A stretch of 14,310 bases of DNA from Planctomycetaceae bacterium (GTDB taxonomy: Bacteria > Planctomycetota > Planctomycetia > Pirellulales > Pirellulaceae): positions 1 to 14,310 of the forward strand of contig SKVE01001017.1 of assembly GCA_007129635.1 (NCBI GenBank). Reading direction: 5' to 3'. The notes beneath the pieces are model-generated. The model had not been told where the DNA came from and made no database searches. It saw nothing but the letters and a program-made list of their open reading frames with translations. Position numbers and translations under genes: made by a program. How positions within the stretch are numbered: the first letter of the stretch is position 1; each line of letters starts with the position of its first letter. Below are positions 391 through 13,878 of the stretch, in pieces.

Positions 391-2301
391 CTATTTCAGA
401 TACCGCGTATTGCCGTCGCGGCGCAGCAGGCCGGTGCGATCGAAGTAGTCCAGCAGCGGAAGAGCGTACTTGCGCGTGGTGTCCAGCAGGTACTTGAACT
501 TGACACTCTCCAAACGGCCCTGCTCGCGCAGGTGCTCGATCAGCCGTTGCCGAGCGACTTCGATCGCCTGGGCGTGGAACAGCAATCCTTGCCCGACCCA
601 GATCAAGCGGCCCTGGTCGCGCAGGTTCTTCAGGGTCTTCTCGACGGCATCTTTTCCGATTCCCGTGGCATGGACGATCTGCTCGACGCTCGGCGGTTGA
701 AAAGGCTGTTCGCGGAACAGCGTCTCGATCTGCGTAAAGTACTCGGCCTCGCGTTCCGATAGCGAGGTCTCGTGCGATGGTAACGCCAGGTGATTGTGCC
801 GTTCCACCAGACGTCCGTCGTTCTTCAGCATGACGATCACCGCGTCCAGCACGGGCTTGTCCCAGTGGGTCGCCCCTTTCAGTTCCTCGAAGGTCATGCC
901 CGGCCGGTCGGGGGTGTCGTGATGATGTTGCTGGACAATCTCCAGCACCTGGCTGCAAGCGGTGTCGGCCGTATCGCGGTGCAGGTATCGGCCGGCGGAG
1001 ATGCCGATCAGTTTTTGCTCCCGCATCCGCTTGGCCAAAATTTCCTGCAACCGGTCTGGCAGAATTTTGGCTCGAACTGCGATTTCGGCTTCGCCGGCTG
1101 CCAGTCCCCCAGCGGTGCGGATGCAGTATTCGACAAACCGGGCGTCATCGCCAATCGCCTGGGCTCTTTGTTCCAGTTCCTCGCGAAGCTGCGTGCGGGT
1201 CCGCTTCAGTCTTCGCGGGACGGCCTCGATGATCGTGCCGCCGCCCACCGTTTGCATGGGCGACAGCAGCCGCAGGATGAAAGGGTCACCCGGTCCGGCG
1301 ATGATCGGGGTTTGGGTACGGATCTGGATCAAGTACTCGCCCGGTTCGCCCACTTCGCCTTGCCCCAGATTGTAAATGGCGGCATTTACTTCGGTCGTCC
1401 CTGTATGGAATCGCACGGCGCCGCCCTGTTTCAAACGCAGCCTATCGCGGGGAAGCAACCGCAGGCGGCAAACGTACCAGGATTCGGGGGCAAAATATCC
1501 GGGCAACGTCAGCGTGTCGCCTCGACCGATCGCCTGGGATTCCCAGTGGCCCACATTCAACGCGGCACATTGCCCAGCCATGACTGTGTCGCTGGCGCGG
1601 CCGTACACTTCGACCCGCTTCAGTCGGCCGCCGAAATCCTGAGGCAGAATGACGACCTCGTCGCCCGGTTGAGCCTGGCCGCAGACCGGAATCCCGGCCA
1701 CGACGGTCCCATAACCCTGGACGGAGAACGCCCGGTCGACGGGCAGACGGAACACGCCGGTCGTGGTTTTCGGATTGATTTGTGCGACCAGCGTTTCCAA
1801 CGCTTCGAGCAGCGGGCTGTAACCCTGGCCGGTGACGTTCGAAACGGGCAAGATCGGTGCGCCTTCCAGGAAAGTCCCTTGAACCAAGTCGGCCAGTTCG
1901 GCTTGTGCCAACTCCACATCTTCCGCCGCGACACGGTCGATCTTTGTCAAGGCCACCAAGCCGTGCCGGATACCCAGCAGCGTCAAGATATCCAGGTGCT
2001 CGCGGGTCTGCGGCATCACCCCATCGTCTGCCGCGACGACCAGGATGACGCCGTCCATCCCCGCCGCGCCTGCCACCATGGTCTTGACGAAATTCTCGTG
2101 GCCGGGCACGTCGACGATCCCGACCTCCAAATTTCCGACGATGCAAGGAGCATATCCCAGATCGATCGACATCCCGCGTTCTTTTTCCTCACGCAGGCGG
2201 TCGGTCTCACAGCCCGTCAGGCTCTTGACCAAGGCTGTCTTGCCGTGATCGATGTGTCCGGCCGTTCCCAAGGTGATGTTGATCCGGTCATGCGACATCA
2301 T
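391..2301 (-). CDS. selB: Selenocysteine-specific translation elongation factor SelB
   Basis: SelB is the GTPase that carries Sec-tRNA(Sec) to the ribosome at UGA codons marked by a SECIS hairpin. The 636-residue product has the usual length (E. coli about 614). The N-terminal GTPase shows the P-loop GHIDHGKT at residues 15-22, the switch region [10 protein letters not shown] at about 42-51, DVPGH at 64-68 and TKID at 119-122. Translation-factor beta-barrels follow to about residue 380. The rest is the winged-helix array, with the typical SelB C-terminus [16 protein letters not shown] and RRDG. The start is the first of two adjacent ATGs, preceded by AGAGGA (2308-2313). It is transcribed away from the methyltransferase/dehydratase operon. 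It implies that the host decodes Sec, although selA and selC are not in this window. Family assignment is very secure. Confidence 0.97.
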
Positions 2302-2425: not shown

Positions 2426-3232
2426 ATGAAGCAGGTTACGAATATCGGATTGACCGAGGTACAGCGGGTTTACAGCGGAGTCGAAGGTGAACTCTGGGGG
2501 CTGATCATGGGCCAGCAGATTCACATCGGCGGATTCCGTTCGTCCCTGGACTTGGCGCAGCGGGCCAGCATCCAGCCGGGTTGGTCGGGCATCGATCTGT
2601 GCTGCTGTCACGGTGCAGGGATGCGATTTCTGCTTCGCTTCTTTCAAGTGGCCAGCATGCATGGTGTGGACGCTACCGCCGCAGTGATCCAGCAGGGTCA
2701 GCAACGGTGCCAGGCCGAGGGACTGTCCGATCAAATCGAATTCACGATGGCCGACGCCTGCCAGACCGGACTGCCGGACGGCAGCTTCGATTTCGTCTGG
2801 GGCGAAGATGCATGGTGTTACGTTGTGGACAAACGCCAATTGATTGCCGAGGCGGCGCGGTTGGTCAAACCCGGTGGCATCATCGCCTTTACCGATTGGA
2901 TCGAAGGCAGCCAGCCATTGACCGAAGACGAAGCCGTCCGGTTGCTGCGTTTTATGAAGTTTCCTAGCATCCAGGATCTGCAGGGCTACACCGAACTGTT
3001 ATCCGAACACGGTTGCGAGGTCCTGGTGGCCGAGGATACCGGACGATTCGCTCCGCACGTGGACCTGTATCTGAACATGCTGAACATGCAGTTGACGTAC
3101 GATGCGTTGCAGATCCTGGATTTCGACAACGTCGGCTTGAAAGCGATGGCTGACGAGATGGTGGGCCTGCAACAACTGGCCCATGCGGGAAAGATCGCCC
3201 AAGGTATCTTCGTAGCCAGGCGGAAAACATGA
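2426..3232 (+). CDS. Class I SAM-dependent methyltransferase, first gene of the dehydratase-like operon
   Basis: This is a 268-residue class I (Rossmann) methyltransferase. The SAM-binding motif I region is IDLCCCHGAG (residues 56-65), an unusual Cys-rich version of the common D-x-G-C-G-x-G. The acidic end of strand beta-2 is D82 in HGVDATAAVI. MADAC (108-112) fits motif II/III, LPDGSFDFVWGEDAWCYV (116-133) is the motif IV area, and RLVKPGGIIAFTDW (145-158) the post-motif. The N-terminus (VYSGVEGELWGLIMGQQIHIGG) resembles sarcosine/dimethylglycine and phosphoethanolamine N-methyltransferases, but the substrate cannot be told from sequence. The stop overlaps the next ATG by four bases (ATGA), so translation is probably coupled to the double-cubane-like protein. 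In context it may modify a product or substrate of the reductase system, possibly a selenium or sulfur compound; that is inference. Confidence 0.88.
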   Translation: MKQVTNIGLTEVQRVYSGVEGELWGLIMGQQIHIGGFRSSLDLAQRASIQPGWSGIDLCCCHGAGMRFLLRFFQVASMHGVDATAAVIQQGQQRCQAEGLSDQIEFTMADACQTGLPDGSFDFVWGEDAWCYVVDKRQLIAEAARLVKPGGIIAFTDWIEGSQPLTEDEAVRLLRFMKFPSIQDLQGYTELLSEHGCEVLVAEDTGRFAPHVDLYLNMLNMQLTYDALQILDFDNVGLKAMADEMVGLQQLAHAGKIAQGIFVARRKT

Positions 3233-4428
3233 CATCTTTTACAACGCGGGCGACCGACGACGCTGCGGATTGTTGCGCGGCGGCTGGCAAAGTCCCCGAC
3301 GATCAGGAACCGACGGCACAGCAGTATTTCGCGCAGATGATCCAGAATTGTCTGCAGAACGCTCAGGCCGCCAAGGATGCGGGACGCCCGATCGTCGGCA
3401 TCCTCTGCGAATTCACCCCCCGCGAACTGATCATGGCGGCAGGCGCCGTTCCCGTTTGCTTATGCGGCGGTTCGGCCAAGACCATTGCCGCGGCCGAACA
3501 GTACCTGCCTGCCAACCTGTGCCCGCTGATCAAGTCCACTTTCGGCTATCACTTGCAAGGGAATAATCCCTTCCTGGAAATGGCCGACTTGATCGTCGCC
3601 GAGACGACTTGCGACGGCAAAAAAAAGATGTACGAATTGATGGCCGAATCACGGCCCATGTATGTGCTGGAATTACCGCAAAAAGCCGATGATCCCGACG
3701 CATTGGAACACTGGGTGCGCGAACTGCAGAAGTTCCGCAGCTTCCTGGAGCAGCGTTTCCAGACGGAGATCACACAGGAGGCTTTGCGGAACGCGATCGC
3801 CACGATGAACCGAGAACGGGCGTTGCGCCGCGAGTTGGCTGCGTTGATGAAAGCGGATTCGCCGCCGCTGACCGGTCGCCAACTGCTGGATTTCAAGAGC
3901 AGCATCTCGGGCCTGTGCGAAGATTTCCGGCAGTACCAGCGGGCTTTGGCCGAGTATCGCGACCAGCAGGCGGGCGATTCGCGAGTCCGCGTTCTCCTGA
4001 CTGGCGTTCCGACGGTGCACGGTGCGGAACGCGTCGTGCAGTTGCTGGAAGACGCAGGCGGATTGGTGGTGGCCGCAGAGAACTGTACGGGCTTGAAGCC
4101 GATCATGGAGGACGTCGACCTGAACGCAGCCGATCCACTGCAAGCATTGGCCGAAAAGTACTTTCACCTGCCCTGCTCGGTGATGACCCGGAACGACCGC
4201 CGTCTGGAATTCCTGCGGGAATTAGCCGTCCAGTACCGGGCGCAATGCATCGTGGATCTGATCTGGCAAGCCTGCTTGACCTACGATGTGGAATCGCACC
4301 GCATCAAGCGGTTCGCCGAGCAGGAACTGGATTTGCCGTATCTTCGGATCGAGACCGATTACTCCCCGTCCGATTCGGCACGGATCATGGTACGGATCGA
4401 AGCCTTGTTCGAGACCATCCGCCGATGA
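3229..4428 (+). CDS. 2-hydroxyacyl-CoA dehydratase family protein, double-cubane (YjiM/DCCP) type
   Basis: The 399-residue protein aligns along its length with E. coli YjiM as I remember it, and so with the double-cubane cluster proteins of the HgdB superfamily. Shared blocks are CEFTPRELIMAAGA (from C60), NLCPLIKSTFG (C98), ETTCDGKKKMYE (C128), AENCTG (C286), PCSVMTRNDRR (C316) and WQACLTYDVES (C349). These six cysteines are the number expected to hold an [8Fe-9S] double cubane, as described for Carboxydothermus DCCP. Such proteins receive low-potential electrons from an ATP-dependent activator and reduce small molecules; the physiological substrate is unknown for most. The N-terminal 30 or so residues, including C15-C16, are an extra tail. 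It overlaps the genes on both sides by ATGA. Family is secure; the double-cubane assignment is inferred from the cysteine pattern. Confidence 0.93.
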   Translation: MTSFTTRATDDAADCCAAAGKVPDDQEPTAQQYFAQMIQNCLQNAQAAKDAGRPIVGILCEFTPRELIMAAGAVPVCLCGGSAKTIAAAEQYLPANLCPLIKSTFGYHLQGNNPFLEMADLIVAETTCDGKKKMYELMAESRPMYVLELPQKADDPDALEHWVRELQKFRSFLEQRFQTEITQEALRNAIATMNRERALRRELAALMKADSPPLTGRQLLDFKSSISGLCEDFRQYQRALAEYRDQQAGDSRVRVLLTGVPTVHGAERVVQLLEDAGGLVVAAENCTGLKPIMEDVDLNAADPLQALAEKYFHLPCSVMTRNDRRLEFLRELAVQYRAQCIVDLIWQACLTYDVESHRIKRFAEQELDLPYLRIETDYSPSDSARIMVRIEALFETIRR

Positions 4429-5486
4429 ATACGATCCTGTACGCGAGCCCGCTGGTTCCCGTCGAATGGTTGGCAGCACACGGGGTTCGGCCGATCTGGT
4501 GGCGAGCGTGCGATCCACGTCGGATCGACGCGGCCGACTGCGACGTGGACCGGCGCGGCGAGCCGGGTTCCCTACTCCGAGGTCGTCGCGGCGTCTGCCC
4601 GCTGGCAGCGGCCGTGGTAGACAGCGCCGCGCGAGCGTCGGCTTCGGCGGTGGTGCTGACCACGACTTGCGATCAGATGCGGTACGCCGCGTCCTGGCTG
4701 CAGTACCAACGCCGGCTTCCCACGTTCCTGATGAACGTCCCGTCTACTTGGGAAACCGAGACCGCTCGGTCGCTGTACCTGGCGGAACTAGAGCGGCTGA
4801 GCCGTCTGCTGGTCGCACTGGGCGGCACGCGACCTTCGAACGAAGCGTTGGCGGAAGTCATGCGTGATTTCGATGGTGCTCGAGCCCGTTTGCTAGGGAT
4901 CCGCGACCGGTTATTGGGACGCGATTTGGCCGCCGCACTGATCACGGTCCGCGAGACGGCGGCGCCGAACGAATGGCCGAGCGTCGCCGATTCGGTCCCA
5001 TCCTCCGACTGCCGACCACATCATGATCTTAGGCAAGGCGGTCCCCTGCGTTTAGCGATGGTCGGCGGGCCGTTGTCCGAGTCCGACTATGGTCTGTTCG
5101 ACTGGATCGAGCAGGCGGGTGGCCGGATCGTCCTGGACGCGACGGAGTGGGGCGAGCGGACATTACCTCGCGTTTTTTCGGCCGAATCGACTCGCCGCGA
5201 CCCGCTGAGCGAATTGGCCGACGCCTATTTCGGCACGATCCCCGACGTCTTTCGCCGTCCCAACCACATGCTGTACGAGTACCTGAGCCGCGAATTATCC
5301 GCGCGGCACGTGCACGGTCTGATCCTCCGCCGCTACCTATGGTGCGATCTATGGCACGCCGAGGTCGCGGTGCTGAAAGCGTGCAGTCCCGTGCCAGTTT
5401 TGGATCTGGATGCATCGGACAGCGAAGCCAGTTCGTCCGAACGCACACGTGGAAGAATCGAAGCCTTCCTGGAGATGTTGCCATGA
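4425..5486 (+). CDS. Divergent 2-hydroxyacyl-CoA dehydratase / BcrC-HgdB-like subunit (three-Cys type)
   Basis: This 353-residue protein is a diverged member of the same superfamily. It begins directly at the core fold (ASPLVPVEWLAAHGVRPI matches the CEFTPRELIMAAGAVPV block of the upstream protein) and lacks that block's cysteine. It keeps the CPLA motif (C58), TTTCDQMRYA (C82) and YLWCDLWHAE (C307), the three positions that bind one [4Fe-4S] cluster in HgdAB/BcrBC-type dehydratases. Positions matching C286 and C316 of the double-cubane-like neighbour are non-Cys (around E241-W242 and in the FGTIPDVF block). The ATG start lies in an ATGA overlap with the upstream gene, so it is preferred to the much longer open frame starting at 3915. 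It is probably one half of a heterodimer with the next gene product. Substrate is unknown; there are no membrane segments. Confidence 0.85.
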   Translation: MNTILYASPLVPVEWLAAHGVRPIWWRACDPRRIDAADCDVDRRGEPGSLLRGRRGVCPLAAAVVDSAARASASAVVLTTTCDQMRYAASWLQYQRRLPTFLMNVPSTWETETARSLYLAELERLSRLLVALGGTRPSNEALAEVMRDFDGARARLLGIRDRLLGRDLAAALITVRETAAPNEWPSVADSVPSSDCRPHHDLRQGGPLRLAMVGGPLSESDYGLFDWIEQAGGRIVLDATEWGERTLPRVFSAESTRRDPLSELADAYFGTIPDVFRRPNHMLYEYLSRELSARHVHGLILRRYLWCDLWHAEVAVLKACSPVPVLDLDASDSEASSSERTRGRIEAFLEMLP

Positions 5487-6853
5487 ACCATCCGCCACGG
5501 CGGATCAGCTTGGAGGATTGGGACCAACGTTACGCGGAGCTGGTCGACGCGGGGTTACACGAGCCGGCCTATGGCGGGCCGCTGCGCCGCCATGCCGAAT
5601 CCGGGGATCGGCGACTGACGCGGTTACAACTGGATAACTCGGCCGCAGCTCTGCAATTATGGAATTTCTTGCTGACCGAAGAGCAGCGTTTGCGGCAGGC
5701 ACGCGAAGTGGGCTGGCAGATATTGGGGACGGTGAAGGATCTGGGCACGATCCCCGTGATGGCCTATGCCCTGCGACGCGTGGTCGCCTTTTATCCGGAC
5801 GGTGCCTGGTGGCTGCCGTGCCTGATGGAGGATCAGACTCGCGTGCTGCAGACCGCTGATTCGCTGGGCATCGACGATTCGTTCTGTCCGGTCCGTGCGA
5901 TGCTGGGGGCCTTCGCCAACCAGGCCCATTTCCCGCTACCCGATCTACTGACCTGCAGTGTCGGAGCCACTTGCGACGACGTGTCGGCATTGGCCCAACG
6001 GCTGGAACGCATGGGCCATCCGATCCTTTGGTGGGAGGTGCCGCATCGGCGTCAGCCGGAACCGGGCGAACCAGCGATCCCGTTGCCTGGCGGATTCCAC
6101 GCGCCGGCCTGTCAAGTCGCGCTGGTGCAAGCAGAATTGACGCGTGTCCGTGACGCGCTGCAGGCTTGGTCCGGCCAGCCGTTAGGCGATCGGCAGCTTC
6201 GAGCCGGCATCGGGGCCGCGAATCGAGTCCGCAAGTTGCTGGGCGAATTGCGTTGGTTGGGCTATACGTCCGAGCCCTGCCCACTGCCAGCCTTGGAAAT
6301 GCTGGTGGCCGAGATGCTGGCCATCCATTTCTGCTCGGACCAACCCGAATCAATCCATGTGCTGGAGCAGTTGTTGGCCGAGGTGCGAGCGCGCGTCACG
6401 GCCGGGCTGGGCGTTTTGCCCAAGCATGCCGTACGCGTTTTTTGGGTCAATCCGGTGGCCGACTTGCGAGTCATGAATCTGTTGGAAGACGTCGGCGGGC
6501 GCATTTGCGGCACCGAGTACTTGTTCTGTCACGCGTTGGACTTGATCCCCGAGGATCTACCGCCATTGGAAGCGCTGGCACGCTGTGCGTTGGCCGACCC
6601 GATGGTCGGTCCCCCGCAGGATCGCAGCCAGCGGATCTGCCGGGAAATACGTCGGTTCGGAGCCCAAGCCGTCGTCATCTCCCGGATCCCCGGCGCCAGT
6701 CACTGCGGTCTGGAAGGGCTGGTCATCGCGGACATGGTTCGCGACCGGTTAGGAATTCCCGTCATCGAGATCGAAGTCCCCCCGATCACCGACGCCCTCG
6801 AACCCAGTCTCCGCACCCGGCTGGAAGCCCTGATCGAGCTGCAGAAAAGGTGA
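5483..6853 (+). CDS. Divergent 2-hydroxyacyl-CoA dehydratase / BcrB-HgdA-like subunit (three-Cys type)
   Basis: The 456-residue protein is a third, longer superfamily member. Recognisable blocks are DSFCPVRAMLGAF (C135), SVGATCDDVSAL (C164), RVFWVNPVADLRVMNLLEDVGG (about 318-339) and ASHCGLEG (C408). These correspond to the CPL, TTCD and QAC positions, so like its upstream partner it can bind one [4Fe-4S] cluster. The second-cubane cysteines of the YjiM-like protein are replaced. Further cysteines (C113, C158, C210, C266, C284, C342, C349, C368, C386) have no known role. The start is in an ATGA overlap with the previous gene. The last two codons and the TGA stop lie within the left inverted end of the RAYT element, so the element may have supplied the stop. 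The C-terminus (LEALIELQ) still resembles that of its paralogues, so little if anything is lost. Confidence 0.85.
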   Translation: MNHPPRRISLEDWDQRYAELVDAGLHEPAYGGPLRRHAESGDRRLTRLQLDNSAAALQLWNFLLTEEQRLRQAREVGWQILGTVKDLGTIPVMAYALRRVVAFYPDGAWWLPCLMEDQTRVLQTADSLGIDDSFCPVRAMLGAFANQAHFPLPDLLTCSVGATCDDVSALAQRLERMGHPILWWEVPHRRQPEPGEPAIPLPGGFHAPACQVALVQAELTRVRDALQAWSGQPLGDRQLRAGIGAANRVRKLLGELRWLGYTSEPCPLPALEMLVAEMLAIHFCSDQPESIHVLEQLLAEVRARVTAGLGVLPKHAVRVFWVNPVADLRVMNLLEDVGGRICGTEYLFCHALDLIPEDLPPLEALARCALADPMVGPPQDRSQRICREIRRFGAQAVVISRIPGASHCGLEGLVIADMVRDRLGIPVIEIEVPPITDALEPSLRTRLEALIELQKR

Positions 6854-6868
6854 CAGGCACCAAATTTG
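6844..6868. repeat. Left inverted end of the RAYT unit
   Basis: A 25-base sequence containing GGTGACAGGCACC. It is repeated exactly in inverted orientation at 7612-7636. It includes the final two codons and the TGA stop (6851-6853) of the third dehydratase-like gene. Confidence 0.85.
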
Positions 6869-6892
6869 GAGATGCCAGGCAGTCTAGGAGGC

Positions 6893-7579
6893 TTAGGATG
6901 ACGCCTGGGTTTTGGTGGCCTTCTTAGGACGGCCACGCGGCCGTAATGACGTCTCAAGCCCAAGCCGACCAGCGGTTGCCACCACCCAATCTTCGTCGCC
7001 ACATGGCGTTCCCCGCTGTACGCAATGACGCAAGGCTCTTAATTCGGCCTCCGTTTGCGGCTCGTTGACCAGATCGATCCAGTTGGCCGGGCGAGGCAAG
7101 GGCCATGCGGCTAGAATCTCGCGGTTACTTTCGTGCCGGCCGGGGCACAGACTCGACCAAGGCCACTGCTCAGCCCGCTCTACCAAGTTGGCTCGCAGTG
7201 CGTTTCGCTCGACGTAGCGAACGACCTGATAGAAATAACCCTCCGTCTGCACGGGGAACGACTTGTAACGTCCCTGGTACAGCGGACCGTAACCCGTCTC
7301 ATGCCGATGCTCTTTCCAACGCTTCACGTGCGTGTTGGTAAGCTGCTGCATAAAAGCGGGCAAATCCCCGTCGTGTTCAGGCCATAAGACGAAGTGCCAG
7401 TGATTGGGCATCCAACAGTATGCACAAACGCGCATCGAGCGTAAGCATAACGTTTCTTTCAACACACGTTCAAATGCCTCGAAGTCGTCCGCCTTATCAA
7501 ACAGATTACGGCGGCCAACTCCGCGGTTGAGGACATGATAAATCATTCCACCCGGGGCATATCGTGATGATCTTGGCAT
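6893..7579 (-). CDS. REP-associated tyrosine transposase (Y1_Tnp / TnpA-REP family)
   Basis: The 228-residue protein is an IS200-like single-stranded DNA transposase. It shows the family start GGMIYHVLNRG (10-20), the HUH metal-binding motif as H60-W-H62 in WMPNHWHFVLWP, LYQGRYKSF (100-108) and YFYQVVRYVERNALRANL (115-132), which supplies the catalytic tyrosine; Y117 or Y122 is the likely residue. The C-terminus ends in RPRGRPKK (213-220), an AT-hook-like basic patch. Such proteins nick and join REP hairpins and are usually single-copy, domesticated genes. It lies inside the 25-bp inverted ends and opposite to the interrupted operon. It appears intact, with no frameshift. No clear Shine-Dalgarno sequence precedes the ATG. 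Confidence 0.93.
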   Translation of the reverse strand: MPRSSRYAPGGMIYHVLNRGVGRRNLFDKADDFEAFERVLKETLCLRSMRVCAYCWMPNHWHFVLWPEHDGDLPAFMQQLTNTHVKRWKEHRHETGYGPLYQGRYKSFPVQTEGYFYQVVRYVERNALRANLVERAEQWPWSSLCPGRHESNREILAAWPLPRPANWIDLVNEPQTEAELRALRHCVQRGTPCGDEDWVVATAGRLGLETSLRPRGRPKKATKTQASS

Positions 7580-7611
7580 TCACTAAGTTTACCCAGAACG
7601 CCCATGCTTGT

Positions 7612-7636
7612 CAAATTTGGTGCCTGTCACCTTTTC
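7612..7636. repeat. Right inverted end of the RAYT unit
   Basis: Exact inverted copy of 6844-6868, with core GGTGCCTGTCACC. It marks the boundary between the mobile unit and the leader of the activator gene. Confidence 0.85.
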
Positions 7637-7719
7637 CGTTGCGGGAAGCTTTGATAGGCTGAGGTCTTTTCATGGGGGCTGTTGGCAGACCACGCTCTGG
7701 AGGACGGGAGAATTCGCCG

Positions 7720-8520
7720 GTGACGCTCTGCGTTGGCATCGATGCTGGATCGAGGACCTTGAAGGTCGTGTTGATCGATCACGACACCGATCGCATGGTG
7801 GCGGCGGGTGTACGGGATCAAGGAATCGACCAGGACGCGTTGGCGCATCAGTTGTTGCAGGAACTGCTGGACCAGCATGGCCTGGATCGGACACAGGTGG
7901 GCGCGATCGTCGCGACCGGCTACGGGCGACGGCTGATCCCCATCGCCGATGCGGTGGTGACCGAGATCACCTGCCAGGCTTGGGGAGTGCGCCGGTGCGT
8001 GCCCGCAGCTCGGGCGGTGATCGATATCGGCGGCCAGGACAGCAAAGTCCTGCAACTGCGACCCGATGGCGGGGTGGCAGACTTTATCATGAACGACCGT
8101 TGCGCCGCCGGAACGGGTCGGTTCCTGGAAGTCGTCGCGACACGGCTGGGCGTCAAGCTGCCGGCGTTGGGCCAATTGGCGGCGGCCAGCCCGACGGGCG
8201 CGACGATCAGCAGCATGTGTGTTGTCTTCGCCGAGACCGAAATCATCAGCCTGCTGGCGTCCGATGTCTCGCCGGCCGACATCGCCGCTGGTGTCCAGGC
8301 AGCCATCGCTTCGCGCGTGGCCGCGATGGCCGGCAGCGACCTGCCCGAGCCGATCGCGCTGACCGGCGGCGTCGCCCTGGTGCCGGGTATGGCTGCTGCG
8401 ATCCAAGTCGCGTTGGGCAAACCCGTGACGATCGCCTCCGACCCGCAGATCACCTGTGCGCTGGGCGCCGCCATCCTGGCCTCGCAACGCCTGGCCAATT
8501 TCCCACCACCTCATGGCTGA
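7720..8520 (+). CDS. 2-hydroxyacyl-CoA dehydratase activator ATPase (BadF/BadG/HgdC, YjiL-like)
   Basis: This is a 266-residue ASKHA-fold ATPase of the HgdC/BadF type. As a homodimer with one bridging [4Fe-4S] cluster it uses ATP to inject low-potential electrons into dehydratase-family proteins. Visible are the phosphate-1 motif GIDAGSRTLK, phosphate-2 IDIGGQDSK, and the adenosine motif ALTGGVALVPG. The cluster cysteines lie in NDRCAAGTGRFLE (C128) and SSMCVVFAETE (C167), 39 residues apart as in HgdC (C127, C166). I prefer the GTG start: it gives HgdC-like numbering and follows GGGAG at a good distance. An in-frame ATG at 7672 would add 16 residues. It surely serves the dehydratase-like proteins upstream, from which it is now separated by the RAYT unit. 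Confidence 0.94.
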   Translation: MTLCVGIDAGSRTLKVVLIDHDTDRMVAAGVRDQGIDQDALAHQLLQELLDQHGLDRTQVGAIVATGYGRRLIPIADAVVTEITCQAWGVRRCVPAARAVIDIGGQDSKVLQLRPDGGVADFIMNDRCAAGTGRFLEVVATRLGVKLPALGQLAAASPTGATISSMCVVFAETEIISLLASDVSPADIAAGVQAAIASRVAAMAGSDLPEPIALTGGVALVPGMAAAIQVALGKPVTIASDPQITCALGAAILASQRLANFPPPHG

Positions 8521-8636: not shown

Positions 8637-8747
8637 TCATCGGCTGCGGAGACACTTGCGTTGTTGTGGCGCTAGATGTTTCGGAATGCTGGGATTGGTC
8701 ACCAAGCCGAGCGGCCCCGCATCCAACAAGACGACGCGGCTCACCAT
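8637..8747 (-). pseudogene. Truncated VapC-like PIN-domain toxin (N-terminal fragment)
   Basis: Starting from an ATG that overlaps the antitoxin stop (ATGGTGA), 36 residues can be read: MVSRVVLLDAGPLGLVTNP and a short unrelated tail. The VVLLDAGPLGLVTNP segment is the first strand and catalytic aspartate region (D9) of a PIN-domain toxin. A complete PIN domain has about 130 residues or more with further acidic residues, none of which follow. The gene is therefore a remnant cut off after about 20 authentic residues. It is non-functional as an endonuclease. Confidence 0.65.
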
Positions 8748-9040
8748 GTCACCCCTTTCAGTTCCAGGGGAAACAGTTTCCGGTTCGAAAGACGATCTTC
8801 GTCCAGGACGCGGATGAGGTACTCGCCGGTTTCTTGTTGTTCGGCCACATCATCGCCGTCGATCCAGGACTGCAGCAACGCCACCAATTCTGCTCGCCGT
8901 TCGGCAGGTGGCAGGTGCTGTTCCAGCAATCGCACGGCCAGCGCATCTGCGGACAGCCCCTGTTGCTCGGCTGCTTGCTTCAATCGCTGCTCCAATTCCG
9001 GAGTCAAGCTAGAGAAATGGTCATCAGGAGCATCCTTCAA
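8741..9040 (-). CDS. Antitoxin-like small protein, probably degraded at its N-terminus
   Basis: The 99-residue frame contains LTPELEQRLKQAAEQQGLSA and a C-terminal VLDEDRLSNRKLF segment. Its position, overlapping the ATG of a PIN-toxin fragment, fits a VapB-like antitoxin. The annotated ATG has GAAGG directly against it with no spacing. The ATG at 9024 has AGGA eight bases upstream and would encode MTISLA before a stop, in a frame shifted from LTPELEQ. I infer that the original protein began MTISL-LTPELEQ and that a small indel near 9010 broke it. The open frame that remains may be translated poorly or not at all. With its toxin truncated it is likely a relic. Confidence 0.55.
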   Translation of the reverse strand: MKDAPDDHFSSLTPELEQRLKQAAEQQGLSADALAVRLLEQHLPPAERRAELVALLQSWIDGDDVAEQQETGEYLIRVLDEDRLSNRKLFPLELKGVTW

Positions 9041-9504: not shown

Positions 9505-9540
9505 TTGGCTACGAAAGACCTCGAAAAACGCCGGTTAGTG

Positions 9541-11142
9541 ATGCAGCGGTCCAAGCAATTGGGACACTGCATCTGCGACCCCAAAAAGCCTTGTCCTTGT
9601 GATCTGCTCTTGAACCAAGACATCTGCCCGTGCGCTGGCGAGCGGCTCGAGCCACCGTCGGGGCCGATACGGCTGACCGAACTGGTCGACAGTCCCGGCT
9701 GTGCCTCGAAGATCGACCAGGCAACGCTGCGCCGCGTGCTGCAGGGGCTGCCCACTCCCGAGGACCCGCGCGTGCTGATCGGCATGCCGGCGGGAGACGA
9801 TGCGGGCGTGTACCAGTTGGACGAAGACACCGCGTTGGTCCAGACGGTCGATGTCTTCACGCCCTCGGTCGACGATCCGTATGTCTTCGGTCAGATTGCG
9901 GCGGCCAATTCCTTGAGCGACGTGTACGCCATGGGTGGCCGGCCTCTGACCGCATTGTCGATCGTCGGTTTCCCCGCCCGCGTGTTGCCGGACGAGATCT
10001 TGCATCAGATCCTCCGCGGCGGGCTGGACAAGATGGCCGAGGCGGGGGTGGCGGTGATCGGCGGCCACAGCATCAATGATCCGCAGATCAAAGCCGGCTT
10101 CGCGGTCACGGGTATCGTGGCGCCGCAGCGGATCGCTTCGAATGCCGGGGCACAACCGGGCGACCGGCTGATCCTGACCAAACCCATCGGCACCGGGATC
10201 CTGGGCTTCGCAGCCCAGATCGGCCGAGCGTCTGAGGATTGGATTCAGGCCGCAGCCTGCTCGATGATCGCCCTGAACAAGCGGGCTGCCGAGTTAATGG
10301 TCCAGTTCCAGGCTCATGCCTGTACCGACATCACCGGCTTTGGACTGATGGGCCATTTGTCTGCGATGGCCTCGGCGGCTGGCGTCGATGTCGAGATCCT
10401 CTGGGACGATGTGCCGTTGTTGCCGGGCGTGTTGCAATGCGCGGCGGACAACATCTTGCCGGGCGGCGTCGAGCGGAACAAGGAGTCCAGCGGTGGAGCT
10501 TTGGCTGCCAGCCAGGGATTGGAATCAGCCGCGCTGGACATCCTGTTCGATGCTCAGACGTCGGGCGGGCTGCTGATCGCGGTCGCCCAGTCTTCGGCCG
10601 ATGCGTTGATCGATGCGTTGCGATCCGAGGGTTGCGCGGCGGCAGCAGTCATCGGTCGAGTGATTGGCGAGGGGAGCGGCCGAATCTTTGTACGAGGCGA
10701 AGGGCGCCGTACGATGCCCGCAGCCACCCCGATCCAACGGCCGCCCCGTGCGGCGAAGATCGCGGAAGACGTGAACCAGGTGGGACCTTCTTTTGACGAG
10801 GCAAGACGAATGAGCGAAAGTTGTTGTGGCGGGCCGAGCGAGTTTGGCGAACCCAATGCGAGCGGTCAGCAACCGGTGGTCGCCGAGAGCCAGCAGAAAT
10901 TCTTCGATTTCCTCCAGTCGGCCAATGCACCCGGCGCCTTGGACGCTGGAACCAAGCGGATCGTCGCGATCGCGCTGTCCGTGCTGGCTCGTTGCGAACC
11001 GTGCGTCAAGAGCCACGTCAAGAAGGCTCGCCAGGAAGGCTTCTCCCAAGACCAGATCGACGAAGCCGCCTGGATGGCCATCTCCTTCGGAGGTTCGCCG
11101 ACGATGATGTTCTACAAGGAAACTCAAAAGGGCGATCGTTAG
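9541..11142 (+). CDS. selD: SelD fusion: Cys-rich N-terminus, selenide,water dikinase, AhpD/CMD-like domain
   Basis: SelD makes selenophosphate from selenide and ATP. Numbering from the ATG at 9541 (533 residues), residues 8-34 carry three CxC pairs (C10/C12, C18/C20, C29/C31) that standard SelD lacks. The kinase follows: GCASK with C54 and K57 matching the catalytic Cys17 and Lys20 of E. coli (Ser stands for Cys19), AGDDAGVY, VFGQIAAANSLSDVYAMGG, GGHSI, TDITGFGLMGHL and DAQTSGG. It ends near residue 388. After a linker containing CCGG (C428-C429), an AhpD/carboxymuconolactone-decarboxylase-like domain (about 449-533) has the redox motif RCEPCVKSH (C485, C488, H492). A TTG at 9505 would add 12 residues; neither start has a good ribosome binding site. 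Fusion of the domains is seen directly; their cooperation in Se delivery or redox control is inferred. Confidence 0.93.
   Translation: MQRSKQLGHCICDPKKPCPCDLLLNQDICPCAGERLEPPSGPIRLTELVDSPGCASKIDQATLRRVLQGLPTPEDPRVLIGMPAGDDAGVYQLDEDTALVQTVDVFTPSVDDPYVFGQIAAANSLSDVYAMGGRPLTALSIVGFPARVLPDEILHQILRGGLDKMAEAGVAVIGGHSINDPQIKAGFAVTGIVAPQRIASNAGAQPGDRLILTKPIGTGILGFAAQIGRASEDWIQAAACSMIALNKRAAELMVQFQAHACTDITGFGLMGHLSAMASAAGVDVEILWDDVPLLPGVLQCAADNILPGGVERNKESSGGALAASQGLESAALDILFDAQTSGGLLIAVAQSSADALIDALRSEGCAAAAVIGRVIGEGSGRIFVRGEGRRTMPAATPIQRPPRAAKIAEDVNQVGPSFDEARRMSESCCGGPSEFGEPNASGQQPVVAESQQKFFDFLQSANAPGALDAGTKRIVAIALSVLARCEPCVKSHVKKARQEGFSQDQIDEAAWMAISFGGSPTMMFYKETQKGDR
10810..10812 (+). promoter_or_regulatory. 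Possible internal translation start for the AhpD-like domain
   Basis: An in-frame ATG begins MSESCCGGPSEF, the point where a free-standing AhpD-like protein could start. GAGG lies nine bases upstream, a better ribosome binding site than at either start of the full-length gene. It may be a relic of two formerly separate genes or may still yield a short product of 110 residues. Confidence 0.35.
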
Positions 11143-11212: not shown

Positions 11213-11373
11213 TTCTCGCGTTCCTTAGCTTCACGATCCTCGCCACCAACAGATCGCGAGCGATCTCCTCGCTAGTTGAACCATCGGCGGCGTTCGAGCA
11301 TAATACATTCACCCAGCGCCTTTGGCTCGTCATCGCCCATCACGATTGACTCCCCCCCGGATTGCAGAATTTC

Positions 11374-13878
11374 ATGGCTGCCAGAAGAAGAAGAGCGACA
11401 AAAAAACAGAGTCAGACTGTGGCAGTAAAGCCGGTCCCACAGCCCGAACGCCCCCTTCGTTGGCCTTCACGCATCGTCTTCACCTTGGTCGCGGTGGCCG
11501 TCATCAGCGGCAGCCTGGTCTTTGCGGATTGGTGGCGTTACCTGCCGGACGATGTGGTCGCCACTTATGTAGGCAGCCATAGCTGTATCGAATGCCACCA
11601 GGACTATTATGAATTGTGGCGAGGGTCGCATCACGATCTGGCGATGAACCTGGCGACGCCGGAAACGGTCTTGGGTGATTTTGACGACGTCCATTTCGAG
11701 CACCATGGAATCCACTCGCGATTGTTTCGCCGCGACGGGAAGTACATGGTCCACACCGAAGGCCCCGATGGCCAGATGGACGATTTCGAGATCCAGTGGG
11801 TGTTCGGCGTCACACCGTTGCAGCAGTACATGGTCGAGTTCGATCGGACGGACGATCATGCGGACGACGAAGTGGCTCGCGTGCAGGTGCTGCGCATCAC
11901 GTGGGACACCGAGCGGCGAGAGTGGTTTTATCTGCCGCCGCCGGACGTCAAGGAACGACTTGCCCCGGACGACGACCTGCATTGGACCGGCGTGGCCCAG
12001 CGTTGGAACAACATGTGCGCCGATTGCCACTCGACCAACCTTCAAAAAAACTACGATCACGACACGGCCCAATACCGCACGACCTGGTCCGAGATCAATG
12101 TCGGCTGCGAGGCATGTCACGGGCCGGGCAGTGTGCATGTCGATCTAGCGAACCAGAATTCGCTGTTCTGGGATCGAAAGCGGGGGTTCGGGCTGGTCGA
12201 CTTGAAATCCGATCCACAGATCGAGATTGAAACCTGTGCTCCCTGCCATTCACGTCGCCGTTACGTACATCCTGGTTTTCTTCCGGGCGACAACTACTAC
12301 GACCACTATGCCAATGAATTAATCGAACGGGCGACGTATTTCGCCGACGGCCAGGTTTTGGACGAAGACTACGTGTACGGATCATTCATCCAGAGCAAGA
12401 TGTTCCACAAGGGGATCCGCTGCACCGATTGCCACGACCCGCACACGACCCGTACGATCCATGAAGGCAATGCGGTCTGTACTTCCTGCCACGAGCATCC
12501 GGCGGGCAAATACGACACACCGGCGCACCATTTTCACGAGCCAGGCACGCTGGGTGCTTCGTGTGTCGAATGCCACATGCCCAAGACGACCTACATGGAG
12601 GTCGATCCCCGCCGTGACCACAGTATTCGTAATCCGCGTCCGGATCTGAGCGTGGCGTTGGGATTGCCCAACGCGTGCACCAAGTGTCACCTGGACACAC
12701 AAGCGGAAGGATTGGCCGATCGCGACGATTTGCAACAGTACTTGGACTGGATGCTGGCAGCCCGCGACGGCGACCCGCTTGTCCAGCAAGAGTTGGCGCG
12801 GGTCGATGCGGAAATGAACGAGGCCTATCAGCAATGGTATGGCGAAAAAACGCTGGGGCCACGCGAGAAACCGCACTTCTCCCATGCCGTCACGCTTTCG
12901 CGGCAGGACGACGCGCAGGCCGTGCCCGGTCTGGTCGACATCGCCACCGACGCTCGGGCTCCCGGCATCATCCGAGCGACCGCCATGTTGGAGTTGGGCA
13001 TGCACGAGAGCCAGGCTCCGGTAGACGCAGCTCGTCGAGGGCTGGGCGATTCCGATCCGCAAGTCCGCGCCACGGCGATCTCTACCCTGCAGGGAAGGCT
13101 GGCCCCCAGGGAACTGGCTGCCGCTTTGGTCCCGCTGCTGGACGATCCGGTCCGCGTGGTTCGCTCCGAGGCGGCTCGCGTGCTGGCAACGGTCCCCGAA
13201 CGTGACCGGCCGGCGCGATCGCAGCAGCCGTTCGAACGGGCGTTGAGCGAATTCCATGCAGGCTTGATGATGTCCAACGACCGAGCGGCTGCTCATATGA
13301 CTTGGGGAATCGTCCAAGAGAATCTGGGGGACGACCAGCAAGCCATCGAGGCGTATGAAACGGCCATGCGAGTCGAGCCGGGATTTGCTGGGCCGCGTAC
13401 CAATCTGGCCGCCGTTTATGATCGGCTGGCCGAGGCGGCGGAGGCTCGCCAGCGGCAAACTGCCCTGGCGCGTCGCCCCTCCAGCCAGCCGCAGGCTGCC
13501 GAAGCTGCCGAAGCTGCCGAGCACTACCGCGAGCAGGCTCGACAATTGCGTGCCCAGGAACTCGTCTGGCTCGAGCGAGATGCCAACCTGGTACCGGACA
13601 ATGCGGCGATCCAGTACCGTTACGGGATGCTGCTGTATTTGCACCGCCGGTTGGAGGAAGCCGAGCAGGCTTTGTGGCGTGCCCACCAACTGGAGCCCCA
13701 CAATCCTCAGTTTTTGTTAGGCGTGGTCTTATTCTACCAAGAAGTCAAGGATTTCGAAAAAGCCTTTTCCCTGGCCGAAGAACTTGTTAAACTGCGGCCG
13801 GAAGATCGGATGTTCCAGCAGATTTTGCGGGATTTACAGCGTCGACGTATGGCGGACGTTCCGTTGCCGTCCCCATGA
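11374..13878 (+). CDS. Membrane-anchored octaheme c-type cytochrome with HEAT-like and TPR repeats
   Basis: The 834-residue protein starts with a basic tail (MAARRRRATKK) and one transmembrane segment at about residues 33-54, so the rest lies outside the cytoplasm. Eight CxxCH heme sites follow: CIECH, CADCH, CEACH, CAPCH, CTDCH, CTSCH, CVECH and CTKCH, between about residues 71 and 439. This resembles the cytochrome c554/NrfA-like multiheme group, but no catalytic subfamily can be named. Residues about 510-610 look like HEAT repeats (VPGLVDIATDARAPGIIRATAMLEL; DPQVRATAISTL; DPVRVVRSEAARVL). About 625-820 contains TPR-like pairs (HMTWGIVQENLGDDQQAIEAYETAM; YRYGMLLYLHRRLEEAEQALWRA). I chose ATG over an in-frame TTG at 11362; neither has a clear ribosome binding site. 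It is a likely electron-transfer protein; partners are unknown. The selD terminator upstream suggests its own transcription unit. Confidence 0.9.
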   Translation: MAARRRRATKKQSQTVAVKPVPQPERPLRWPSRIVFTLVAVAVISGSLVFADWWRYLPDDVVATYVGSHSCIECHQDYYELWRGSHHDLAMNLATPETVLGDFDDVHFEHHGIHSRLFRRDGKYMVHTEGPDGQMDDFEIQWVFGVTPLQQYMVEFDRTDDHADDEVARVQVLRITWDTERREWFYLPPPDVKERLAPDDDLHWTGVAQRWNNMCADCHSTNLQKNYDHDTAQYRTTWSEINVGCEACHGPGSVHVDLANQNSLFWDRKRGFGLVDLKSDPQIEIETCAPCHSRRRYVHPGFLPGDNYYDHYANELIERATYFADGQVLDEDYVYGSFIQSKMFHKGIRCTDCHDPHTTRTIHEGNAVCTSCHEHPAGKYDTPAHHFHEPGTLGASCVECHMPKTTYMEVDPRRDHSIRNPRPDLSVALGLPNACTKCHLDTQAEGLADRDDLQQYLDWMLAARDGDPLVQQELARVDAEMNEAYQQWYGEKTLGPREKPHFSHAVTLSRQDDAQAVPGLVDIATDARAPGIIRATAMLELGMHESQAPVDAARRGLGDSDPQVRATAISTLQGRLAPRELAAALVPLLDDPVRVVRSEAARVLATVPERDRPARSQQPFERALSEFHAGLMMSNDRAAAHMTWGIVQENLGDDQQAIEAYETAMRVEPGFAGPRTNLAAVYDRLAEAAEARQRQTALARRPSSQPQAAEAAEAAEHYREQARQLRAQELVWLERDANLVPDNAAIQYRYGMLLYLHRRLEEAEQALWRAHQLEPHNPQFLLGVVLFYQEVKDFEKAFSLAEELVKLRPEDRMFQQILRDLQRRRMADVPLPSP
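13495..13521 (+). repeat. 9-bp in-frame tandem repeat in the cytochrome gene
   Basis: Three units of GCTGCCGAA (the last ends GAG) encode Ala-Ala-Glu repeats in a linker between TPR-like units. A tract like this could vary in copy number without breaking the frame. Confidence 0.7.

What the first reader, a model, noticed from the sequence alone, without database searches (positions are those of the whole stretch)
2426..8520. ATP-driven reductase operon with three different dehydratase-family proteins and one activator
The sequence shows a methyltransferase, three tandem HgdB-superfamily proteins joined by ATGA overlaps, and an HgdC/YjiL activator. Known systems have either a single double-cubane protein plus its reductase (YjiM/YjiL, DCCP) or a two-subunit [4Fe-4S] dehydratase plus activator (HgdAB/C; BcrBC with BcrAD). 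Here both architectures appear together: the first protein keeps six conserved Cys (60, 98, 128, 286, 316, 349), while the second and third each keep only the three single-cluster Cys. I infer a composite complex in which a double-cubane protein and a three-Cys heterodimer share one ATP-dependent electron donor.
Basis: partly seen in the sequence, partly recalled or inferred. Interest (0 to 1): 0.8.

Follow-up and report, generated by a model that had tools for sequence, protein, structure and literature searches.

The report
Selenium-linked ATP-driven iron-sulfur reductase operon
A set of five genes for a probable ATP-powered iron-sulfur reductase, found in many environmental bacteria, often sits beside the genes that put selenium into proteins, so it most likely helps those bacteria handle selenium in a way not yet studied.

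Summary
The genes are real: a methyltransferase (MT), three HgdB-superfamily proteins (H1, H2, H3) joined by ATGA overlaps, and an HgdC-type activator (Act) that a small transposon separates from H3 here. H1 is of the double-cubane type: its six cysteines align with those of DCCP. H2 keeps exactly the three single-cluster cysteines. Predicted structures of H2 and H3 show the superfamily fold.

The premise that known systems have one architecture or the other is wrong: benzoyl-CoA reductase BzdNO combines both cluster types.

The main finding lies outside the given coordinates: this is a selenium gene cluster (SelB upstream, a SelD fusion downstream). Among relatives, 40 of 60 long loci have SelA, SelB, SelD or tRNA-Sec within 10 kb. 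All 18 H3-bearing genomes of a 343-genome phylum sample carry SelD, against 203 of 325 others.

Best reading: an ATP-driven reductase of selenium metabolism, probably supplying reduced selenium to SelD. The selenium link is well supported; the reaction is inferred.

The parts
391..2301 (-). SelB, selenocysteine-specific elongation factor (divergent neighbour)
   Evidence: NCBIfam TIGR00475 343.2 bits, cut-off 242
2426..3232 (+). MT, class I SAM methyltransferase with a Cys-rich motif I (DLCCCHG, C59-C61) and C131
   Evidence: Pfam Methyltransf_11 1.9e-17; best NCBIfam hit is DVU_1556 family, 60.7 bits, below its cut-off of 155; C59, C60, C131 in 62/62, C61 in 61/62
3229..4428 (+). H1, double-cubane-cluster-type reductase subunit
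   Evidence: NF040772 420.7 bits, cut-off 350; six Cys match DCCP
4425..5486 (+). H2, single-cluster-type HgdB-superfamily subunit, three conserved Cys (58, 82, 307)
5483..6853 (+). H3, HgdB-superfamily subunit with an N-terminal extension and extra conserved Cys (113, 284, 342)
6844..7636 (.). REP-type transposon with 25-nt inverted arms; transposase gene 6893-7579 on the minus strand; separates H3 from Act
   Evidence: Pfam Y1_Tnp 2.7e-11; NCBIfam NF047646 63.2 bits, below cut-off 80; inverted arms
7720..8520 (+). Act, HgdC-type ATPase/activator (longest ORF from 7672; GTG at 7720 is the likelier start, judged from relatives)
   Evidence: TIGR00241 245.2 bits, cut-off 125.4; C144 and C183 in 67/67
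9505..11142 (+). SelD with a six-Cys N-terminal segment and a C-terminal CMD/AhpD-like domain (CxxC 497-500)
   Evidence: TIGR00476 373.6 bits, cut-off 125; CMD 1.6e-16; Cys 22, 24, 30, 32, 41, 43, 66 in 35/35

Best explanation
MT-H1-H2-H3-Act is a conserved module of selenium metabolism. Act, an ATPase with a [4Fe-4S] cluster, fires low-potential electrons into H1, whose [8Fe-9S] double cubane stores or uses them, and into the H2/H3 pair, whose [4Fe-4S] clusters have an open iron site. I propose that the open site binds and reduces a selenium species to selenide and hands it to the SelD variant (six-Cys N-terminus, CMD domain), which makes selenophosphate for SelA. The methyltransferase probably acts on a soft thiol- or selenol-type substrate. 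Shown by computation: gene content, fold, cysteine positions, linkage to selenium genes. Inferred: clusters, electron path, shared activator, substrate, hand-over to SelD. My own odds: selenium link 0.9; ATP-driven reductase chemistry 0.75; selenide supply to SelD 0.4.
For: Loci: 49 of 80 H3 loci carry SelA, SelB, SelD or tRNA-Sec within about 10 kb, and 40 of 60 loci of 10 kb or more; 20 of 26 loci with at least 9 kb upstream and 5 kb downstream. MT H1 H2 H3 Act stand in that order in 45 of 80 loci, SelD next in 29 of these; the two commonest maps are MT H1 H2 H3 Act SelD (13) and SelB(-) SelA(-) MT H1 H2 H3 Act SelD (11) (tRNA not in this count).

Genomes: of 18 loci given (17 without a selenium gene nearby, plus L046 with SelA nearby), SelD passes its cut-off in 17 genomes and SelA in 16. 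In 343 phylum genomes H3 is in 18, the window's own included, and SelD in 221: 18/18 with H3 against 203/325 without, Fisher P 2.8e-4. The six-Cys SelD start is in 14/343, 7 of them with H3, P 8.5e-7.

Of nine places where H1 stands apart, it lies by SelB (L106), by SelA and tRNA-Sec (L102), or in SelB, NapH-like, H1, SelD, SelA, SelD (L107); in the other six no Sel gene is seen. The window's genome has tRNA-Sec, 66.6 bits, gathering score 47.

DCCP has been tied to methyl-selenium clusters (PMC10418091, passages). TudS, a relative, carries [4Fe-5S] and transfers sulfur (PMC11971306, passages).
Against: 20 of 60 long loci have no selenium gene within reach. L068's genome has neither SelD above cut-off nor SelA. 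SelA enrichment in the phylum sample is not significant: 15/18 against 204/325, P 0.06. Seven of 14 genomes with the six-Cys SelD show no H3; they are 72-91% complete, three of them at 90% or more. G361 (locus L080) has MT-H2-H3 but no H1 or Act was found, and G343 has no H1. L064's SelD ends before the CMD domain. Many genomes are incomplete MAGs, so absences are weak in both directions. Nothing here shows that a selenium compound is the substrate.
Confidence: 0.45

Rival explanations
1. Methyl-selenium salvage or detoxification: MT and the reductase form or break methyl-selenium compounds, recycling selenium lost to methylation, as proposed for mlp clusters, many of which hold a DCCP.
For: Many mlp clusters contain a DCCP, several also SelABCD, and they are proposed for methyl-selenide recycling (PMC10418091, passages). 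MT is part of the module (37 of 39 well-flanked loci) and has invariant cysteines.
Against: mlp clusters use corrinoid-dependent methyltransferases; the module has a SAM-type one. A SAM methyltransferase normally adds methyl groups, so it would not by itself demethylate.
Confidence: 0.2
2. The module is a selenium-dependent enzyme: H2/H3 carries labile selenium placed by SelD, so the module consumes selenium instead of supplying it.
For: SelD goes with H3 in 18/18 phylum genomes, even where SelA was not found (G000, G050, G290). Extra conserved cysteines in H3.
Against: SelA, SelB and tRNA-Sec are also neighbours, which a cofactor enzyme would not need. No in-frame TGA is seen at a conserved Cys of H1, H2 or H3, which excludes only the selenocysteine form of this idea.
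Confidence: 0.12
3. A CoA-ester reductase or dehydratase like BzdNO or HadBC, beside selenium genes by clustering of anaerobic functions.
For: Same fold and, for H2, the same cluster positions; BCR and HAD act on CoA esters (PMC11971306, passages). Two of 102 neighbouring ORFs match Enoyl-(ACP) reductase/short-chain dehydrogenase and two match NAD_binding_4, which I read as general dehydrogenase matches.
Against: In those 102 ORFs, from the 20 long loci without selenium genes, no CoA ligase or acyl-CoA dehydrogenase family is among the 25 commonest Pfam families; ferredoxin-type domains (up to 5 members) and NUBPL (3) lead (121 families with two or fewer members were not shown). It does not explain the linkage to SelD.
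Confidence: 0.1
4. An unrelated ATP-driven reductase for some other small molecule needed by anaerobes that also use selenium; the linkage reflects shared regulation by anoxia.
For: DCCP reduces acetylene, hydrazine and azide, with unclear physiological relevance (PMC11971306, passages). Some loci lack selenium neighbours.
Against: The neighbours are the selenium genes themselves, in several bacterial groups, and a particular SelD variant is enriched with H3.
Confidence: 0.13

Closest known systems
DCCP with DCCP-R (6eno, 7yyl, 7yzm; from Carboxydothermus, and E. coli YjiM/YjiL as kin, both recalled)
   Same: H1 matches DCCP by sequence (2.5e-58), by all six cysteines and by NF040772; Act matches the activase chain 7yyl_E (1.3e-40).
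   Different: Two further single-cluster-type paralogues and a methyltransferase are part of the set, and it sits with selenium genes. Act's best solved match is MbdQ (6.8e-49), not DCCP-R.
Class I benzoyl-CoA reductase BzdNO with BzdPQ
   Same: Combines a double-cubane subunit with a single [4Fe-4S] subunit (PMC11971306, passages). H2 and H3 have the same fold.
   Different: Two paralogues, not three; a CoA ester is the substrate. H2 and H3 are deeply diverged: the best BLASTP piece of H2 against H3 is 29 residues at E 0.2.
2-Hydroxyisocaproyl-CoA dehydratase HadBC with HadI
   Same: H2 keeps the same three cysteines as HadC; Act matches its activator 4eht (2.1e-48).
   Different: No double-cubane partner (PMC11971306); I know of no selenium link of HAD (recalled).
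Type 1 mlp gene clusters with DCCP, its reductase and SelABD
   Same: A DCCP tied to selenium genes (PMC10418091, passages and figure legends).
   Different: Corrinoid-dependent methyltransferases instead of a SAM methyltransferase; no H2/H3 is mentioned in the passages seen ('dehydratase' occurs 0 times).
HgdB-like and activase genes near SelABD in Slackia (Lin et al. 2015, Table 1)
   Same: STRING lists 2-hydroxyglutaryl-CoA dehydratase subunits and an activase as linked to candidate selenium genes (PMC5322559, one passage).
   Different: No three-paralogue module is described in the passage seen.

Membership tests
Double-cubane cluster protein (for H1) | Six Cys ligands at DCCP positions | tested here: met
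   H1 60/98/128/286/316/349 align to Cys 76/114/144/309/341/374 of 7yyl_C
Double-cubane cluster protein (for H1) | Passes NF040772 | tested here: met
   420.7 bits, cut-off 350
Double-cubane cluster protein (for H1) | [8Fe-9S] cluster present | not testable with these tools
   Needs Fe/S analysis, EPR or a structure
Double-cubane cluster protein (for H2 and H3) | Six Cys ligands | tested here: not met
   H2 has three of six; H3 two exact and one shifted by three residues; scores 66.6 and 59.5, cut-off 350
BCR/HAD/DCCP superfamily (H2, H3) | Superfamily fold | tested here: met
BCR/HAD (H2/H3 as heterodimer) | Three-Cys [4Fe-4S] site with an open iron | tested here: inconclusive
   H2 trio at exact positions; H3 third Cys offset by three residues. 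The cluster itself was not testable
BCR/HAD (H2/H3 as heterodimer) | CoA-ester substrate | not tested
   No recurrent CoA ligase or acyl-CoA dehydrogenase among the families shown, which is only indirect
HgdC-type activator (Act) | Activase family with two conserved Cys for the bridging [4Fe-4S] cluster | tested here: met
   TIGR00241 245.2 bits, cut-off 125.4; C144 and C183 in 67/67; their role as bridging ligands is recalled
DVU_1556 methyltransferase (MT) | Passes NF045667 | tested here: not met
   60.7 bits, cut-off 155
Selenophosphate synthetase SelD | Passes TIGR00476 and keeps the catalytic Cys | tested here: met
   373.6 bits, cut-off 125; C66 in 35/35; the same position reads TGA in L060 and L078. 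That C66 is the catalytic position is recalled from E. coli SelD

The most novel reading that the evidence does not exclude
A dedicated ATP-driven selenium reductase: a three-paralogue Fe-S machine in which H1's double cubane and the open-site clusters of H2/H3 produce cluster-bound selenide and pass it directly to a specialised SelD (six-Cys N-terminus, CMD domain), giving an enzymatic, channelled selenide supply in place of free selenide.
Probability: 0.3. Interest if true: 0.87.

Novelty: new variant of a known kind. Interest (0 to 1): 0.64.

Why it matters
How cells deliver selenide to SelD without releasing this toxic species is, as far as I recall, an open question. A conserved ATP-driven reductase that travels with SelD and with a modified SelD would make it testable. 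It would also give double-cubane proteins like DCCP, whose physiological role is called unclear in the 2025 BzdNO paper (PMC11971306, passages), a concrete pathway, and add two deeply diverged, unnamed subfamilies (H2, H3) to the BCR/HAD family.

Tried and rejected
Rejected: H1-H3 as recent tandem copies. H1/H2 are 23% and H1/H3 27% identical over part of their length, and H2/H3 show no significant match; H1 and H2 (12 sequences each) are each one clade with support 1.0. H3 is one clade too, but its support value (0.045, at the midpoint root) is not usable.

Rejected: selenocysteine in the module itself. Internal stops in H1 and H3 matches are four, in H2 none, and none is at a conserved Cys; SelD shows TGA at its catalytic Cys in L060 and L078. 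Split readings of H1, H2 or H3 (e.g. L036, L040, L045, L056, L023) look like frameshifts and were not followed.

No coordinates come with the models, so Cys-Cys distances could not be measured.

Literature: searches showed no paper that, by listing or passages seen, describes this three-paralogue module or a SelD-CMD fusion; the 2008 selenium-gene paper PMC2432076 holds none of six terms asked (dehydratase, HgdB and others). The library holds only open-licence PMC papers. Haft and Gwadz 2023 and the 2018 DCCP paper are not held, so a description there cannot be excluded.

Limits of counts: the 80 loci are the best 80 of 134, found with H3 patterns. ARAGORN was run on 47 of the 80, so the tRNA-Sec count is a lower bound. 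The 18 genomes are those of 17 of the 20 long loci without selenium genes, plus L046. The 11 genomes are those of 10 of the 17 loci without H1, plus L093's. The Cys counts include the window and only matches above score and length limits. In one search I gave 102 ORFs from the 20 long loci without selenium genes and left out the longest by hand; these are computed ORFs, not proven genes.
Full report
WHAT IS THERE. The window is contig C143 of G000, a genome bin of 63.6% estimated completeness. Its genes are SelB (391-2301, minus), methyltransferase MT (2426-3232), H1 (3229-4428), H2 (4425-5486), H3 (5483-6853), a REP/Y1 transposase (6893-7579, minus), activator Act (ORF 7672-8520, likely start 7720), a RelB-like ORF (8741-9040, minus), a SelD fusion (9505-11142) and a multihaem cytochrome with HEAT and TPR repeats (11362-13878). 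ATGA overlaps at 3229, 4425 and 5483 join MT, H1, H2 and H3. The transposon, with perfect 25-nt inverted arms at 6844-6868 and 7612-7636, lies between H3 and Act; the stop codon of H3 (6851-6853) is inside its left arm. In relatives Act starts within 350 bp of the end of H3 in 69 of the 70 loci that show it, so I read the gap as a recent insertion.

CYSTEINES. The six H1 cysteines align to Cys 76, 114, 144, 309, 341 and 374 of DCCP. In BzdN five align to Cys 36, 73, 100, 263 and 327, and the sixth falls one residue from Cys293; these are the [8Fe-9S] ligands named in PMC11971306 (passages). H1 has two more invariant cysteines, C77 and C79 (61/61). H2 keeps only the positions of H1 C98, C128 and C349, the same three that HadC keeps. 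In the H2 model all three stand just before a helix (59-70, 83-95, 308-320). H3 keeps C98 and C128 exactly (C135, C164). Its third candidate, C408, is three residues past the aligned position and sits in the first turn of helix 406-423. C113 and C284 (81/81) and C342 (76/80) are extra. So 'only three' is right for H2 and wrong for H3.

CONTEXT. A scan of named genomes with the H3 alignment gave 134 relatives, of which 80 were kept. By record title they are mostly Planctomycetota, with Verrucomicrobia, Kiritimatiellae, Lentisphaerales, Omnitrophota, Armatimonadota, Sumerlaeota, Hydrogenedentes, Myxococcota and one Riflebacteria bin. All five genes are in the same locus in 53 of 80, and in 31 of 39 loci with at least 5.5 kb upstream and 2 kb downstream of H3; they stand in the order MT H1 H2 H3 Act in 45 of 80. 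Selenium genes (SelA, SelB, SelD or tRNA-Sec) lie within the roughly 10 kb flanks in 49 of 80, in 40 of 60 loci of 10 kb or more, and in 20 of 26 of the best-flanked loci. By a rough estimate of mine, four genes in a 4 Mb genome would fall within such a stretch by chance about 2% of the time. Loci whose H3 is only 33-39% identical still hold MT, H3, Act and HgdB-like partners, though no selenium gene was seen in those five stretches (L095-L099). In the 47 loci scanned by ARAGORN, tRNA-Sec was found in 16, and the only other tRNA was one tRNA-Gly call in L027.

CO-OCCURRENCE. Among 18 loci given (17 without any selenium gene nearby, plus L046), SelD passes its cut-off in 17 genomes and SelA in 16; L068's genome has neither. 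In a 343-genome phylum sample H3 occurs in 18, the window's own genome included, SelA in 219 and SelD in 221. SelD is present in 18/18 H3 genomes and 203/325 others (P 2.8e-4); SelA in 15/18 and 204/325 (P 0.06, not significant). SelA was not found in the window's own incomplete bin, but tRNA-Sec was (66.6 bits).

THE SELD VARIANT. The window's SelD has six N-terminal cysteines, a Cys-Cys pair and a CMD domain with CxxC, all conserved in the 31 to 35 aligned sequences that cover them (only the better SelD matches were aligned). It is not universal: L064's SelD ends before the CMD domain. Many rows of the phylum SelD table carry one in-frame TGA, as expected for selenocysteine-type SelD (position not checked), whereas the window's SelD has none. 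The six-Cys start is found in 14 of 343 genomes, 7 of which have H3 (P 8.5e-7, and 1.7e-5 among SelD genomes only). It is therefore enriched with H3 but not confined to it.

H1 AS PARTNER. Of 11 genomes examined whose H3 locus shows no H1, 9 have an H1 elsewhere. Its neighbours there are SelB (L106), SelA and tRNA-Sec (L102), a run of SelB, NapH-like ferredoxin, H1, SelD, SelA, SelD (L107), MT (L100), Act (L101), a NapH-like membrane ferredoxin (L108, short contig), and nothing recognised by my queries in L103, L104 and L105. H1 is thus a steady partner by gene content, and tied to selenium genes on its own in 3 of 9 places.

SHARED ACTIVATOR. G287 (99% complete, one contig) has one activator and one H1 at the thresholds used, so one ATPase must serve H1 and H2/H3 there if all are active. 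G355 and G356, of unknown completeness, also show one activator with H1 moved away. Against this, in G284 the only DCCP found (37% identical to H1) has its own activator beside SelD and tRNA-Sec, while MT-H2-H3 has another activator, and in G361 no activator was found. Sharing is plausible, not proven.

MECHANISM. Family knowledge: an ATP-dependent electron-activation module feeds the Fe-S partner; BzdN's double cubane is thought to store electrons and BzdO's [4Fe-4S]-OH2 to do the chemistry; TudS, a relative, uses [4Fe-5S] and transfers sulfur (PMC11971306, passages). Reduction of elemental selenium to selenide needs a very low potential (recalled, not looked up), which would fit an ATP-driven donor. 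From this and the linkage I infer that H2/H3 handles a selenium species and feeds SelD. The substrate and the role of MT are the weakest points.

NOVELTY. H1 is a member of a known family, and DCCP has already been tied to selenium (PMC10418091, passages; PMC5322559 Table 1 lists HgdB-like genes). New here, as far as the searches listed under Tried and rejected reach, are the three-paralogue module with a Cys-rich methyltransferase, its spread, its link to selenium genes and to an unusual SelD. I rate it a new variant of a known kind.

Noticed in passing
9505-11142: SelD carries a conserved six-Cys N-terminal segment and a C-terminal CMD/AhpD domain with CxxC; the six-Cys start is enriched in genomes with H3 (7 of 14).
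   Followed up: partly
2426-3232: The methyltransferase has a triple Cys in its SAM-binding motif I (DLCCCHG; 61/62 or better) plus invariant C131; its substrate is unknown.
   Followed up: partly
6844-7636: REP-type transposon with perfect 25-nt inverted arms inserted at the very end of H3; the H3 stop codon lies in the left arm.
   Followed up: partly
L107:3054-11252: Selenium cluster SelB, NapH-like membrane ferredoxin, H1, SelD with one in-frame TGA, SelA, a second SelD without one, with tRNA-Sec beside it.
   Followed up: partly
L076:5120-5947; L009:19852-20709: A NapH/MauN-like membrane ferredoxin (69.9 and 63.4 bits, below the cut-off of 213) recurs in 13 of 80 loci and might feed electrons to the activator.
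   Followed up: partly
L086:2871-6442: A double-cubane protein (437.6 bits), the only one found in that genome, with its own activator directly before the SelD fusion, next to MT-H2-H3-Act.
   Followed up: partly
8741-9040: Weak RelB-like antitoxin match (26.6 bits, cut-off 50); no toxin was looked for.
   Followed up: no
11362-13878: Multihaem c-type cytochrome with HEAT and TPR repeats downstream of SelD.
   Followed up: no
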